Positions 4,363 through 61,760 of a stretch of 64,000 nucleotides of DNA are shown here, piece after piece. This DNA is from Ruminococcus sp. HUN007 (GTDB taxonomy: Bacteria > Bacillota > Clostridia > Oscillospirales > Ruminococcaceae), in assembly GCF_000712055.1 (NCBI RefSeq), contig NZ_JOOA01000002.1, positions 2,170,001-2,234,000 on the forward strand. Direction: 5' to 3'. Each line of letters begins with the position of its first letter. The first letter of the stretch is position 1. The position numbers and the translations under genes are program-made. The notes below the pieces were generated by a model. The model was not told the origin of the DNA. It was given only the letters and a program-made list of their open reading frames with translations, and made no database searches.

Positions 4363-4370
4363 GAAAGCGC

Positions 4371-4460
4371 TGATTTATTCATAAATCAGAGGGGGACACG
4401 GGGCGAAGCCCCGAAGTCGCCTAAAACAGGCAATCCGGCTTCGCAGGATTGCCGACTTAA
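4371..4460. repeat. Family C palindromic repeat
   Basis: A CTGATTTATTCATAAATCAG hairpin, then GGGGCGAAGCCCC, then GGCAATCC...GGATTGCC. It lies just downstream of serS. Other members of this family lie at 29080, 33780, 37140 and 61652. Confidence 0.7.
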
Positions 4461-24935: not shown

Positions 24936-25865
24936 TTAACTTCCCTGCATTGCAGCAATCTGAGCTTTGAGGCGAGATATTTCAGCAGCCTGAGCGAAAT
25001 TGAGATCTTTTTCCCTTTCGAGTGCCTTGTCTTTTATTTCAAGAGCCTTGTCTTTCACTTCAAGAGCCCTGTCTTTCACTTCAAGAGCTCTGTCTCTTTT
25101 TTCAAGTTCTTTAGTATATTTAATACGTAACTCTTCATTTGATTCATCAATAAGTCTCTGAACTTTTTCACACATAGAAACTCCACCTTTCTCATTGCTT
25201 TTATAAAACCGTACTTTATCAGACAGCGGACCGAAATCATCGCGGGATGCATCACTGTTTTTGAAATACTGAAGAAGCTTTGTGATGTCGCGGTCGGTCG
25301 TTATTTTTGTATTCAGATAGATCTCATGTACTCCGTTCGGAACGGTGTTGTCACGACCTTTTAGTTTTCGTTCGACTTCGTAATAATTGTCACCAAGATC
25401 AAACGGATCAAAAGCCGATATGAAGATGAAATACGCTTCCGGAAGTGAGTCATAATCACATCCTTTTCCGAGCAGGACAGAATCAAGATTAGCTTGATAG
25501 GATCTGATACGTTTAGGATGATTGCCTTCGTTTGATTTCTGAACTTCGATATTGTATACCCGCCCTGAATCATCTTCAGCAAGGATATCAAGTATTACTG
25601 AATGAGATATAAGGTTGCGGATATGGTACTGAACTTTGCACGCCTTAACGGTAAGTGTATCAATGCCGGTTATTTCTCTGAGAACATAAGTGCACACTTC
25701 CGTATCTTCCATGACGGCAGCGAAGAATGTGTCGTCCATTAGATTCAAACTCTTTACAAGTGCTTTTCTGGCTTCGATGGAACTGATGAACTCCCTGTAG
25801 CCGATGCGCCGCCTGTATCTTTTGTTTTTACTTGCTTTTCTGTTTATACCTTTGATTTTTTTCAT
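24936..25865 (-). CDS. Rpn-family PD-(D/E)XK nuclease/putative transposase, copy 2
   Basis: 309 residues from ATG 25865 (AAAGGAGAT site). It is nearly identical to the copy at 10995, with the same catalytic-like NIEVQKS region. It differs mainly in the C-terminal coiled coil, which has four heptads (KRDRALE, VKDRALE, VKDKALE, IKDKALE) instead of one. This copy is uninterrupted. It is bracketed by family A repeats at 24791 and 26034, defining a unit of about 1.3 kb. Confidence 0.87.
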   Translation of the reverse strand: MKKIKGINRKASKNKRYRRRIGYREFISSIEARKALVKSLNLMDDTFFAAVMEDTEVCTYVLREITGIDTLTVKACKVQYHIRNLISHSVILDILAEDDSGRVYNIEVQKSNEGNHPKRIRSYQANLDSVLLGKGCDYDSLPEAYFIFISAFDPFDLGDNYYEVERKLKGRDNTVPNGVHEIYLNTKITTDRDITKLLQYFKNSDASRDDFGPLSDKVRFYKSNEKGGVSMCEKVQRLIDESNEELRIKYTKELEKRDRALEVKDRALEVKDKALEIKDKALEREKDLNFAQAAEISRLKAQIAAMQGS

Positions 25866-26033
25866 GGTATCTCCTTTAATTATACCATGACCCGGGTCGA
25901 TGGGCAATATTATTTTTTAGATATAATGGATAAATTTATCATCGCTATTATAATACCATAAACAGGATTACTTGTCAACCATTTTTGAGGGATAAAATAA
26001 AATAATTAGCATTTTACCATTTCGAGATATAAA

Positions 26034-27281: not shown

Positions 27282-27731
27282 ATGCTTAAAATAATATTTG
27301 GCGATGCTCAGAATTCTGTTTACCATCCGCCGACGTATTTTGACAACACCTATGAAGATGAATGGATAACAGATCCGCTTTCTGTTGAAATGATAAAGGA
27401 TATCGATAAATCTGATGTTATCAGTCCGAGAGCTATTGACAGTCCGGTACTCGGTTCGATTTCAGTAAAGGAACTTTCCGGTGGTGTCAAAACGCTTATG
27501 CTGATGCAGTTCGATGATTCCGGAAAGATATTCAATGCTTCAGCTTGCGGAGATAACTGTGCCAAATGGATAGTTGAGATAAGCAGAAAAAAAGATCTGA
27601 CAATTAATCTTCATCACATAATGGATTTCAGTGACTGTGATGATTTCAGTGCATACATCGTCAATACAGGAAAAACTGTGAACAGTAACAAAGAATATAT
27701 TGATGAAGCTTTCAGAATAGAGGAAAGATGA
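27282..27731 (+). CDS. DUF4869 family protein, copy 1
   Basis: 149 residues. The sequence YFDNTYEDEWITDPLSVEMIKDIDKS, then SPVLGSISVKELSGGVKTLMLM and CGDNCAKWI, matches the DUF4869 family as I remember it; no function is known. It has a GAGGTGATATC site. The next gene, a P-loop ATPase, starts 4 bp after its stop, so they form an operon. It is paralogous to 32676, which has a different partner. Confidence 0.7.
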   Translation: MLKIIFGDAQNSVYHPPTYFDNTYEDEWITDPLSVEMIKDIDKSDVISPRAIDSPVLGSISVKELSGGVKTLMLMQFDDSGKIFNASACGDNCAKWIVEISRKKDLTINLHHIMDFSDCDDFSAYIVNTGKTVNSNKEYIDEAFRIEER

Positions 27732-28790: not shown

Positions 28791-28962
28791 ATTTTATGAG
28801 AGCGATAGATAGCGTAATTGTGATTACATAAATCTATAAAATATTGAACGAATAATTGTAAAAAACTTATCTGAAAGTCAATCAGCATATCTTACGTATT
28901 TATTACTGATCGGAGATATGCTGATTTTATTTTGCTTTATAACAGAACATGGTTCTTCATCA

Positions 28963-29407
28963 TCAAAGTTTTATTGATTTCAGATAGACGGATAATAATT
29001 CTAGTGCCGTTTCTCTTTCATGTATTGAGCAATTTGAAAGTTGATCAAAGAGTTCGTTTTGTTTTACAGTAATATTAGGGAAACACTGATTAAATCGGAA
29101 ATCCGGCTTTACCGGATTTGCGAAGGCGGGATTTGCGGGGCTTCTCCCCGGACCCCACGCTGATTTATGAATAAATCAGCCTTTCCTTAGGTATATCTTC
29201 GGTTAAAACAGCATCTGGAGTAATTTTAAGCGCAGAACATATTTTTAAAATAGTTTCAATTCGCATATTAACGGTTCCACGTTCAATATCTGCATATGTT
29301 CTATCTGAAAGATTTGCTGCTTCAGCAACTTCACTTTGAGTTAAACCAGCTTTCTTCCTGATGTTATATAATTTGCACCCAATAGTTTTAAAATCAAAAA
29401 TAAGCAT
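28963..29407 (-). pseudogene. XRE-family regulator interrupted by a palindromic element
   Basis: ATG 29407 has an AGGAGG site. The intact N-terminal part (29165-29407, 80 codons) has the helix-turn-helix LTQSEVAEAANLSDRTYADIERG and stops inside a family C repeat. Removing the repeat (29080-29186) and one TTAGG copy joins EDIP to NITVKQNELFDQL and continues in frame to a stop at 28963-28965. This restores a 110-residue protein, a usual XRE length. The shortened protein keeps its DNA-binding domain, so it may still bind. It is divergent from the promoter at 29457. Confidence 0.85.
29080..29186. mobile_element. Family C palindromic MITE-like element with target duplication
   Basis: 107 bp with related ends (GAAACACTGATT... 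and the complement GGAAAGGCTGATTTATTC). Internal hairpins include AATCCGG...CCGGATT and GGGGCTTCTCCCC. It is flanked by direct repeats TTAGG at 29075-29079 and 29187-29191. It has no coding capacity. Its insertion broke the XRE gene. Confidence 0.8.
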
Positions 29408-29456
29408 TATTCTTCCTCCTGACAAGCATATATATGAATGATACTTCCTATTTTGC

Positions 29457-29485
29457 TTGACGAACAGGAACTATTGTGGTATAAT
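29457..29485 (+). promoter_or_regulatory. Promoter with XRE-type operator
   Basis: TTGACG (29457-29462), a 17-bp spacer and TATAAT (29480-29485). AGGAACT in the spacer and AGTTCCT about 25 bp downstream form an inverted pair around the -10. This is a plausible operator for the divergent XRE regulator. Confidence 0.75.
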
Positions 29486-29489
29486 CATA

Positions 29490-29642
29490 GGTAGAAAAGT
29501 TCCTAAATTATTCGATTATTTAGGAGAGAATTCGGTACAAAGGCACAATTTGATTGATGTAAGGGAAGATTATTGACTGTGGGGTAAGTCAATTTATAAT
29601 TTTTTGCCACAGTTATTGTATTATAAAACTGTGGTATTTTTT
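29490..29642 (+). promoter_or_regulatory. Structured leader with attenuator-like terminator
   Basis: About 150 nt from the promoter to an intrinsic terminator (CCACAGT 29607-29613 / ACTGTGG 29628-29634, then T-rich) that lies just before the ribosome-binding site of the 29660 gene. An earlier ACTGTGG (29576-29582) can pair with the same CCACAGT, so two exclusive structures are possible. Another hairpin, CCTAAAT/ATTTAGG, lies at about 29501-29524. It could be a conditional attenuator or a small RNA. Confidence 0.55.
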
Positions 29643-29659
29643 ATAAGGGGGATTAAATT

Positions 29660-31675
29660 ATGAAAAAAATAGCGGTTTTATTTTTGACATTTTTACTTTG
29701 TACTATGTGTTGCGCTTGTAATAACGATAATAGTACAAAACAATCGGAAACAAGTATAAGTGATTCTGAAAATAATGAATATGTAAACTTAACTGTTTCT
29801 AATGAGGATTGTGTAGGTAAGGATTATGAGAGAATTAAAAGTGATTTAGTGAAACTGGGGTTAAATAACATAGAGTGTATTGCTGTATCAGAATTGGATC
29901 TGATAGATAAAAATCGAGTTAATGAAGTAGAAAAGATAACACTAAACGGAATGGAATCGTTTAGTAATGGAGAGCAGGTAAAAAGAGATTCTGAGGTTAT
30001 AATATATTATTATGATTTAAAAAATATTATATATCCATATGCATCAGATGAATTTGAGCATGTGACACCAGAAGAAGTAAAAGATAAGCTTAAAGAGATT
30101 GGCTTTGAAAACATTGAAATAAAAGAAATATCTGATTTGAATCCGGATGAATTTAAAGATGAATACTATAATCAGGTTGTATTGCAGGATAATACAGTTA
30201 TAAATAAAGGTGATTCGATAAAAATAGATAGTAAAATAACGATAAACAGTCATTCTACATACTTACTTTATAATGTGAATTTTGATATTGAGTTTATTGC
30301 AAATTGGTTTTTTGACAAATATAACGTTAATGTCATAATTGATGATGAAGAATATTGTACGTTAAATCATGGACAGAATGCAAATTGGACATTAAAGTTT
30401 CAAGAAGGAAAGCATAAACTTGTATTCAAGAGTTCTTCAGATGAATCAATTAATAACACTCTTTCGATAGATGTAGATGCGGATATAGATATAGGATATA
30501 AATTGTCTTGCCATACAGATAGTATAGAATTAACTGAAAAATATTTTGATCGTAAAGAAGAATTAGAACCTAATCAGGTTAAAATAAAAAATACAAACAG
30601 TAGTTTTTATGACAAAAACTATAAAGACGTAATTGCAACTTTAAAAGATGCTGGTTTTACGAATATTAAAGAAAATCCGTTATATGATATTATATGGGGA
30701 ATAACGGCAGAAGGCAGTGTGGAAACAGTTTCTATTAATAATAAAACAGATTATAAGTATGGAGCTGTATTTGATAAGTCCAGTGAAGTTGTAGTTACGT
30801 ATCATTTAAAACAAGAAAATGATCCGAATAAAAAGCAAGATACGAGTACTTCATCAAATACTAATAATAATGATGATAATGTTATAAAAGAAACTTCTTA
30901 TGAGATGGCTAAAAGAGCGGTTATAGTAGCTATGACTAATTGTCAGGCAACAGATGTTTTTGAAAGCGATGGCTATACTTATGATGTTTCTAAATTCCAT
31001 AGTTATGACGATCTAAGTAGCTTTTATTTAGAATTAGTCAGTGAAGGTAACTGGAATACACAATCGGAAAGTTCATGGCAGGTTAAAGATATGAAATTGT
31101 GTATTTCAGGCAGTGATACTTATATTAAAGTTTCAGCTAATGTGAGCCTGAACGAAGATGTATATACTGTTGATGATGTTGATCAATTTATAGGAAATAA
31201 AAATTATATTGATTCAAATGATGATGCCAGAATTAATAAAGAACATTTTAGCGTTTCTGATAATAATCCGTTTTTAAATGTACCGCTTGAATTAATGTCA
31301 AATAATAGAGGAAAAGTTCAGGATAATAATGGTGATTCATCACCGGAAGATGACCACACAAAGTGGATAGAAAATCAGATGGATTTATGGGATGGCAGTC
31401 ATAAAGAATTAGCTAAATTGGTAAAAGAAAAACTTAGCGGAGGCAAATCATTTAGATTTGAAAAATTTGAATTCATTGATGTTGATAATGAAGAAAAAGC
31501 TGAAGTCGTAGATAATGTTTTGACCAAAGTTGATTCGGAATACAAATCAGAAATTGGAGATCTTTATGTTATTCAGAAGTTTACAGTAAAGGTTAATAAT
31601 AAGACTGTAAGTATGACAGCGTACGGATGGGTAAAGAAATCCGATAATTCAACAACCTTGCTTTTCTTAGAATAA
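29660..31675 (+). CDS. Lipoprotein with PASTA-like modules
   Basis: 671 residues. The N-terminal signal ends in a lipobox-like CCAC-NN (cysteine near residue 20). Three modules of about 70 residues, each with a 'VxxxLKxxGFxNI...' helix and a V-x-I-x-Y/H strand, lie at about 45-125, 127-200 and 305-375; they resemble PASTA-type folds. The last module is closest to the C-terminal domain of the 31746 product. The C-terminal half is acidic and unrecognised. It is markedly AT-rich compared with core genes, which suggests transfer. Confidence 0.65.
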   Translation: MKKIAVLFLTFLLCTMCCACNNDNSTKQSETSISDSENNEYVNLTVSNEDCVGKDYERIKSDLVKLGLNNIECIAVSELDLIDKNRVNEVEKITLNGMESFSNGEQVKRDSEVIIYYYDLKNIIYPYASDEFEHVTPEEVKDKLKEIGFENIEIKEISDLNPDEFKDEYYNQVVLQDNTVINKGDSIKIDSKITINSHSTYLLYNVNFDIEFIANWFFDKYNVNVIIDDEEYCTLNHGQNANWTLKFQEGKHKLVFKSSSDESINNTLSIDVDADIDIGYKLSCHTDSIELTEKYFDRKEELEPNQVKIKNTNSSFYDKNYKDVIATLKDAGFTNIKENPLYDIIWGITAEGSVETVSINNKTDYKYGAVFDKSSEVVVTYHLKQENDPNKKQDTSTSSNTNNNDDNVIKETSYEMAKRAVIVAMTNCQATDVFESDGYTYDVSKFHSYDDLSSFYLELVSEGNWNTQSESSWQVKDMKLCISGSDTYIKVSANVSLNEDVYTVDDVDQFIGNKNYIDSNDDARINKEHFSVSDNNPFLNVPLELMSNNRGKVQDNNGDSSPEDDHTKWIENQMDLWDGSHKELAKLVKEKLSGGKSFRFEKFEFIDVDNEEKAEVVDNVLTKVDSEYKSEIGDLYVIQKFTVKVNNKTVSMTAYGWVKKSDNSTTLLFLE

Positions 31676-32675: not shown

Positions 32676-33125
32676 ATGCTGAAAATATATTTTGGAGAAA
32701 CGGAAGGCGAAATTTATAATCCTCGGCTGTATTTCGCAAATCAATACGAGGATGAATGGATAACTTCTGATCTTTCAAAAGAAATGATAAAGGATGTTGA
32801 CAGGTCTGAAGTCGTATCAGCTCATGTAATTGAAAGTCCTGTTCTTGGTGCTATTACTCCGCTTCACCTTTCAGATGGAGTGAAAACCCTTATTTTAATG
32901 GCTCACGATAACACTGGTTGGTTTTTCAACGCAACTGCAGGCGGTGACAACTGTGCGAAGTGGATACTTAAGATTGCGGAAGAAAAAGATCTTACCATAA
33001 CGCTTCATAATATTATGAGTTTTCAGGATCTCGATATTAAGGCTGAGATACTGAACGACGGAAGATTTGTTAATAATTATACTGAGTACCTTGATGCTGC
33101 AGTTGATTTTTTTAAATGTAAGTAA
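32676..33125 (+). CDS. DUF4869 family protein, copy 2
   Basis: 149 residues, paralogous to the 27282 product over its whole length (shared YEDEWIT, SPVLG, GGDNCAKWI). The upstream region is also duplicated, with a GAGGTGATATC ribosome-binding site. It is followed 18 bp later by a small membrane protein instead of an ATPase. Function unknown. Confidence 0.7.
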   Translation: MLKIYFGETEGEIYNPRLYFANQYEDEWITSDLSKEMIKDVDRSEVVSAHVIESPVLGAITPLHLSDGVKTLILMAHDNTGWFFNATAGGDNCAKWILKIAEEKDLTITLHNIMSFQDLDIKAEILNDGRFVNNYTEYLDAAVDFFKCK

Positions 33126-33713: not shown

Positions 33714-33779
33714 ATCACCGAGGGAATTTAAGAATCGTATTTTATAATATAATCATAGAGAAAAAAGCGCGCATGAAAA

Positions 33780-33871
33780 CGCTGATTTATGAATAAATCA
33801 GCGTGGGGCACGGGGCGAAGCCCCGCAACCCCCTCACTCAGGCAATCCGGCGAAGCCGGATTGCCTGCTTA
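33780..33871. repeat. Family C palindromic repeat
   Basis: GCTGATTTATGAATAAATCAGC, GGGGCGAAGCCCC and GGCAATCCGGCGAAGCCGGATTGCC hairpins in series, between DUF4869 cassette 2 and the response regulator. Confidence 0.75.
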
Positions 33872-37126: not shown

Positions 37127-37138
37127 GTTTATGGAAAT

Positions 37139-37225
37139 GCTGATTTGTGTATAAATCAGCGTGGGATACGGGGCGTAGCCCCGCATCCCCGCCCGTAAAT
37201 ACGGCTTCGCCGCATTTACGATCTG
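37139..37225. repeat. Family C palindromic repeat
   Basis: GCTGATTTGTGTATAAATCAGC, GGGGCGTAGCCCC and GTAAATACGGCTTCGCCGCATTTAC hairpins. Confidence 0.7.
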
Positions 37226-37430
37226 ATCAGTGGTTACAGATAAAAATCAAAACCGTCATTTTAACCGTTTGAGACTCCACATGGTTTTCAACTCTGTTGA
37301 AAACTCGGTTGAAAGTGTGGAAAAGGATGTTTGAAACTGTTTTTTGAAGTGCAGTTTTCATATAATTTTATAAGTTTTCGGTATGAAAACTATTAAAACA
37401 TCAGTTAAACAGTTAACAAACTGTTGAAAA
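37226..37430. other. AT-rich spacer with repeated GTTGAAA motifs
   Basis: No gene. GTTGAAA(A) or its complement TTTTCAAC occurs several times (about 37277-37440). The block also contains TGTGGAAAAG. No consensus DnaA box (TTATCCACA) was found, so an origin is not called. Confidence 0.4.
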
Positions 37431-61651: not shown

Positions 61652-61760
61652 GAAACACTGATTAAATCGGAAATCCGGCTTTGCCGGATTTCCGGAGGTG
61701 GGATTTGCGGGGCTTCGCCCCGAACCCCTACGCTGATTTATGAATAAATCAGCGTTTTCC
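61652..61760. repeat. Family C palindromic repeat
   Basis: GAAACACTGATTAAATC start, AAATCCGGC...GCCGGATTT, GGGGCTTCGCCCC and GCTGATTTATGAATAAATCAGC end. It is close to the copy inserted in the XRE gene. The flanks (CAAGT and CAAGG) agree at four of five bases, a weak target-duplication signal. Confidence 0.75.

What the first reader, a model, noticed from the sequence alone, without database searches (positions are those of the whole stretch)
28963..29407. A palindromic MITE-like element has split an XRE regulator; excision restores the frame exactly
The 107-bp family C repeat (29080-29186) is flanked by TTAGG direct repeats. Deleting it with one TTAGG joins the 80-codon helix-turn-helix frame to a downstream tail (NITVKQNELFDQLSNC...) that runs in frame to a stop at 28963, giving a 110-residue protein. 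This shows directly that family C is mobile and makes a 5-bp duplication. The truncated regulator is divergent from an operator-bearing promoter, so the insertion may have changed control of the lipoprotein operon.
Basis: seen in the sequence. Interest (0 to 1): 0.75.

Follow-up and report, generated by a model that had tools for sequence, protein, structure and literature searches.

The report
Mobile mini-element split a regulator gene
In a Ruminococcus-like bacterium, probably from the gut, a 108-base non-coding jumping element of a common type recently landed in a gene-control protein and cut off its predicted pairing end; this is ordinary mobile-element biology, clearly documented here.

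Summary
A 108-bp palindromic element (29079-29186) splits an XRE regulator gene after codon 73. The duplication is 4 bp (TTAG), not 5 bp: 34 of 53 own-genome copies have an exact 4-bp match, 1 of 53 a 5-bp match. Taking out the element and one TTAG gives a 110-residue frame that aligns without a gap at the junction to the intact 112-residue homologue L050. Of 69 usable homologue loci (L050's own record among them), 68 stop after 105-114 residues, one runs off its contig at 106, none ends near 80. The copy is identical over 108 bp to one elsewhere in the genome with another duplication, ATAA, so it moved recently. Ends and target preference (YTAR) match a 1224-bp IS5-family insertion sequence with ten full copies: an IS5-type MITE. 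The truncated regulator keeps its helix-turn-helix but loses a predicted two-helix C-terminal hairpin, a layout like SinR's. A divergent promoter and an operator-like repeat are conserved in 59 and 62 of 67 loci. Changed control of the lipoprotein gene is plausible but untested. Known kind; modest interest.

The parts
29079..29186 (.). IS5-type MITE copy, 108 bp, no transposase gene, strongly palindromic
   Evidence: Ends defined on 53 own-genome copies; identical over 108 bp to the copy at G000:C2:1763459-1763566; folding z-score -4.1 and -5.5 on the two strands.
29075..29078 (.). Target duplication TTAG, left copy
29187..29190 (.). Target duplication TTAG, right copy
29165..29407 (-). Truncated XRE regulator: 73 native codons (whole helix-turn-helix) plus 7 codons read from the duplication and element, then stop
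   Evidence: Pfam HTH_3 E 5.7e-14 on the frame with an upstream TTG start.
28963..29078 (-). Severed C-terminal tail of the XRE gene (residues 74-110 plus stop), no internal stop
   Evidence: the stretch is found with intact L050 as query, residues 62-110.
29457..29485 (+). Divergent promoter TTGACG-N17-TATAAT facing the lipoprotein gene
   Evidence: same architecture within 2 mismatches in 59 of 67 loci, shuffled expectation 2.2.
29432..29451 (.). Operator-like inverted repeat nearest the XRE start, at -44 (ATAGGAA-N6-TTCATAT)
   Evidence: a repeat within 3 mismatches at -48 to -36 in 47 of 67 loci.
29487..29506 (.). Second operator-like inverted repeat, at -99 from the XRE start (TTAGGAA-N6-TACCTAT)
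   Evidence: a repeat within 3 mismatches at -103 to -96 in 49 of 67 loci; any such repeat in 62 of 67, shuffled expectation 1.8.
29660..31675 (+). Divergent gene, 671-residue lipoprotein-like protein with a weak PASTA match; presumed target of the regulator
   Evidence: lipoprotein by eye from the N-terminus; target role is inference from position.

Best explanation
A 108-bp MITE mobilised in trans by an IS5-family DDE transposase (or a close relative of it) inserted at a TTAG site in an intact 110-codon XRE gene and duplicated TTAG. The insertion is recent. The reading frame now stops seven codons past the break, so the protein keeps its helix-turn-helix but lacks the C-terminal two-helix hairpin. 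By analogy with SinR, that hairpin probably carries dimer or tetramer contacts, so the short protein should bind its operators weakly or without cooperativity, and the divergent lipoprotein promoter and the regulator's own promoter would be partly derepressed. Shown: insertion, duplication, frame, intact relatives, recent copy, matching insertion sequence, conserved promoter and operator-like repeats. Inferred: which transposase moved it, the oligomerisation role of the tail, and the change in control.
For: Insertion and frame. Intact relatives: L050 and 69 homologue loci of 105-114 residues, one of them (L136) L050's own record. 4-bp duplication. Identical 108-bp copy with another duplication (ATAA). 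IS with left end GGAAACGCTGATTTAATCG (the MITE has GGAAACACTGATTAAATCG) and exact YTAR duplications in 5 of 6 copies checked. IS5_4 transposase, 306.7 bits against a cut-off of 140. Ten full copies identical in protein. IS5 target motif YTAR is in print (PMC10359306, passages). Two-helix C-terminus. Foldseek match to SinR at E 1.2e-4. SinR dimerises mainly through its two C-terminal helices (PMC6192195, passages). Conserved promoter and operator-like repeats.
Against: The MITE family is wider than the IS: G005 and G009 carry many MITE copies but no match to this transposase at E <= 1e-20, so another, lost or unsampled transposase may have spread it. MITE and IS share only the ends. The window genome has 20 further DDE_Tnp_1 matches whose element ends I did not examine. 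19 of 53 copies lack an exact 4-bp duplication. There is no expression or binding result. The SinR comparison by Foldseek has rmsd 10.2 over 102 columns, so the hairpin is placed differently, and the sequence profile matches SinR only over the HTH.
Confidence: 0.9

Rival explanations
1. The short 80-residue XRE is the natural gene, and the downstream frame is a chance open frame or an unrelated small gene.
For: Some XRE proteins are short single-domain regulators (C.AhdI and C.BclI are among the hits).
Against: None of 69 homologues ends near residue 80. The tail is found with L050 residues 62-110 as query and aligns without a gap at the junction.
Confidence: 0.02
2. The insertion is real but neutral: the 80-residue protein still represses and the lipoprotein gene is controlled as before.
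For: The DNA-binding domain is whole; promoter and operator-like repeats remain; some solved XRE regulators are little more than the DNA-binding domain.
Against: All 69 homologues run to 105 residues or more, and the tail has near-invariant positions in an alignment of 38 of them (L86, C89, T96, A97, L101, Y104, S107), so it is under constraint in relatives.
Confidence: 0.3
3. The element is not moved by a transposase but is a REP- or ERIC-like palindrome spread by other means.
For: Strong hairpins; mostly outside genes (49 of 53 copies not flagged as lying inside an open frame).
Against: Matched terminal inverted repeats, a 4-bp YTAR-like duplication, and an IS with the same ends and target in the same genome.
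Confidence: 0.04

Closest known systems
IS5-family MITEs (non-autonomous IS derivatives)
   Same: About 108 bp, terminal inverted repeats shared with an IS5-family element, 4-bp YTAR duplication, no transposase gene, many copies, mostly outside open frames.
   Different: The interior (three hairpins, G+C-rich core) does not come from the IS found here; only the ends match.
IS5-family insertion sequence (NCBIfam NF033581, IS5_4)
   Same: Ends GGAAACRCTGA, YTAR target.
   Different: The IS is 1224 bp and codes for a transposase; ten full copies identical in protein, plus broken pieces at two places.
SinR (Bacillus), an XRE repressor of 111 residues
   Same: N-terminal HTH plus two C-terminal helices; inverted-repeat operators.
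   Different: Only the HTH is similar by sequence; no SinI-like partner was looked for; this regulator gene sits beside a divergent gene.

Membership tests
IS5-type MITE | Terminal inverted repeats shared with an IS5-family element of the same genome | tested here: met
   Left end: 17 of the first 19 bp agree with the IS; right end: 10 of the first 11 (GGAAAGGCTGA against GGAAACGCTGA).
IS5-type MITE | 4-bp YTAR target duplication | tested here: met
   34 of 53 copies exact 4-bp, 27 of 53 both exact and YTAR; IS copies 5 of 6. This copy: TTAG.
IS5-type MITE | Short, no transposase, many copies | tested here: met
   108 bp; 351 end matches with at most 1 mismatch in the genome (both ends and the IS ends counted), 0 for the reversed control pattern.
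IS5-type MITE | Transposition by the IS5 transposase | not testable with these tools
   Needs a mobility assay.
SinR-like XRE repressor | XRE helix-turn-helix | tested here: met
   HTH_3 E 5.7e-14.
SinR-like XRE repressor | Two-helix C-terminal dimerisation domain (of the intact homologue) | tested here: inconclusive
   Helices 74-88 and 91-108 predicted; dimerisation not tested; hairpin placement differs from SinR.
REP/ERIC-like repeat | No transposase-type ends and no target duplication | tested here: not met
   Both are present.

The most novel reading that the evidence does not exclude
The XRE gene belongs to a widespread regulatory module of Clostridia-type genomes: a 105-114 residue XRE protein with a divergent promoter and two operator-like repeats at near-constant positions, joined to very different divergent genes, many of them apparently lipoproteins or membrane proteins. 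The MITE has turned the regulator into a DNA-binding-only form that still occupies the operators without its oligomerisation part, rewiring one such module rather than simply killing it.
Probability: 0.15. Interest if true: 0.5.

Novelty: new member of a known kind. Interest (0 to 1): 0.33.

Why it matters
It gives a clean, recent example of a MITE inactivating or altering a regulator, corrects the target duplication, names a likely helper transposase in the same genome, and points to a conserved XRE-operator module whose partner gene varies, which is directly testable.

Tried and rejected
Rejected: a 5-bp duplication; a natural 80-residue regulator; a DDE_Tnp_1_2 (PF13586) helper, no match in the window genome; an Rfam family in 28900-29700, no match at E up to 1; a relative of the repeat in the plasmid collection, no match. 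A scan of viral contigs for the IS transposase gave one relative, 61% identical, L216, not followed up. The right-half matches L082 and L083 in G008 and G010 lie near no transposase frame that I recognised in the frame lists (no family search was run on them). I tested whether the tail had decayed faster than in intact relatives; among the nearest relatives its identity is somewhat below to near the mean of other pairs with the same HTH identity (percentiles 0.07 to 0.49 for the seven nearest), so no clear decay. Hairpin covariation: 21 cells change on both sides in 9 of 23 pairs, 38 of 1281 cells are broken; with partners shifted, 3 to 9 cells change on both sides. This supports maintained hairpins but not a function, since palindromes can be corrected arm to arm. 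The two terminator-like sites (0.5 expected) were not pursued.

Literature, listings seen: MITE with Ruminococcus, 1 of 1 paper; IS5 family with MITE, 6 of 6 and 12 of 31; insertion sequence with Ruminococcus albus, 12 of 12; IS5 direct repeats, 10 of 95; SinR, 4 of 4. No title or abstract start listed there describes this family. Passages only were seen of PMC10969869, PMC6192195, PMC3281130 and PMC10359306.

Limits: the 53 copies are not a random sample. Of the 40 places scored in the first search, 39 were fetched and the 40th is the window copy; the rest come from stretches chosen from a truncated list of end matches and from the window. 19 further hits were partial or at an edge and were dropped. 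In one search, 11 of 80 loci were left out: L201 and L205 (contig ends), L206 and L208 (tail only), L209-L215 (weak, unrelated). In one search three loci with under 120 bases upstream were dropped; the window is one of the 67; the shuffles keep base composition only, 20 per locus. In one search, 65 loci had enough upstream DNA and a divergent frame was found in 50. The divergent promoter and repeats of relatives are themselves inherited together with the gene, so the 67 loci are not independent.

Full report
What is there. The window lies in an unnamed 4.2-Mb genome (G000). Its congener G010 holds the closest intact XRE homologue found among 61 genomes, L050; the same sequence appears in a named record as a Ruminococcus sp. 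MAG (L136). At 29407-29165 on the minus strand runs an 80-codon XRE frame. A 108-bp palindromic element lies at 29079-29186, flanked by TTAG on both sides. The frame's last seven codons and its stop are read from the duplication and the element.

Size of the duplication. I compared 53 copies of the same genome for which both ends could be placed. 34 of 53 have exactly matching 4-bp flanks; random re-pairing gives a mean of 7.7 and a maximum of 16. Only 1 of 53 matches over 5 bp. The flanks favour YTAR: 34 of 53 on the left and 33 of 53 on the right, 27 of 53 both exact and YTAR. The net deletion, 112 bp, is the same, so the frame argument is unaffected.

Empty site and intact relatives. With the element and one TTAG taken out, the frame runs 110 codons to the stop at 28963. 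The homologue L050 (84% identical in the HTH part) has no element there and continues into the same tail. A scan of species genomes kept 80 loci. Of these 69 were usable: 68 stop at 105-114 residues and one, L158, runs off its contig at 106. One tail without an N-terminus on a contig with full flanks, L206, is the scar of a deletion of about 1.25 kb relative to L050, which removed the divergent promoter and the starts of both genes. A second tail-only hit, L208, is at a contig end.

Age. The copy is identical over all 108 bp to the copy at C2:1763459-1763566, which has another duplication (ATAA); the median identity between copies is 90.8%, and one other identical pair was seen (L022 and L036). 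The tail has no stop and shows no clear excess of change compared with intact pairs of the same HTH identity. The insertion is recent.

What moves it. A search for DDE_Tnp_1 found 30 matches in G000, ten of them copies of one 345-codon frame. These ten lie in a 1224-bp insertion sequence (ends checked in seven loci) whose ends match those of the MITE and whose flanks are exact YTAR duplications in 5 of 6 copies checked. NCBIfam calls the protein an IS5 family transposase (NF033581, 306.7 bits, cut-off 140). The ten full copies are identical in protein; two more places hold broken pieces. YTAR is the printed target motif of IS5 (PMC10359306, passages). Against a simple story, two congeners (G005, G009) have many MITE copies (320 and 227 first-look candidates, 14 scored in each and all of high score) but no such transposase at E <= 1e-20. 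The family is therefore probably older than the present IS burst, and the helper may have been a relative. The ends of the other 20 DDE_Tnp_1 matches in G000 were not examined.

What it does to the protein. A model of the intact homologue (mean pLDDT 88, pTM 0.59) has five helices at residues 6-68, a less certain linker and two helices at 74-88 and 91-108. The element cuts after residue 73, so the whole hairpin is lost and the DNA-binding part kept. Foldseek lists SinR third, after two chains of C.BclI, but with rmsd 10.2, and the sequence profile matches SinR only in the HTH. SinR dimerises mainly through its two C-terminal helices (PMC6192195, passages). The likely effect is weaker or non-cooperative binding; this is inference.

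What it controls. Upstream of the XRE start, 59 of 67 loci have a divergent TTGACA-N17-TATAAT promoter and 62 of 67 an AGGAA-N6-TTCCT type inverted repeat, against 2.2 and 1.8 in shuffled sequence. A repeat lies at -103 to -96 in 49 of 67, at -48 to -36 in 47 and at both in 42, the window among them. In the window the promoter (29457-29485) faces the 671-residue lipoprotein-like gene. In relatives the divergent genes differ widely; of 50 found, 31 have a hydrophobic N-terminal stretch and 15 a lipobox-like motif by crude patterns. A repressor that also controls itself is the natural reading. Whether lipoprotein expression changed is untested.

Verdict. A well-supported recent insertion of an IS5-type MITE into a conserved regulator: a new member of a known kind. 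Functional rewiring is possible but unproven.

Noticed in passing
L136-L207 upstream regions; window 29408-29510: XRE homologues in Clostridia-type MAGs share a divergent promoter and operator-like repeats at near-constant distance, but the divergent gene differs (lipoprotein-like, membrane and zinc-ribbon-like proteins, judged by crude patterns and by eye): perhaps a portable regulatory module.
   Followed up: partly
L206:2600-3150: Independent loss of the same kind of module in another Ruminococcus MAG: a deletion joins the remnant of the divergent gene to the XRE tail.
   Followed up: partly
29097-29121 and the same part of other copies: The first hairpin of the element shows compensatory changes among 56 distinct copies, e.g. 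G-C to T-A at one pair in five copies.
   Followed up: partly
G005, G009: Two congeneric genomes hold many copies of the MITE but no match to the IS5_4 transposase at E <= 1e-20.
   Followed up: partly
61652-61757, 37130-37235, 33777-33865, 4363-4413: Further full or partial copies of the same element in the window.
   Followed up: no
27282-27731 and 32676-33125: Two similar 149-residue proteins flank the XRE-lipoprotein region; the first is DUF4869, the second looks like a paralogue by eye.
   Followed up: no
24936-25907: PD-(D/E)XK nuclease family transposase-like protein, PDDEXK_2.
   Followed up: no
G000:C2, about 2775568-2779851: Three copies of the 1224-bp IS lie close together; two transposase genes are 1228 bp apart, as if two copies stood head to tail with about one 4-bp target between them.
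   Followed up: no
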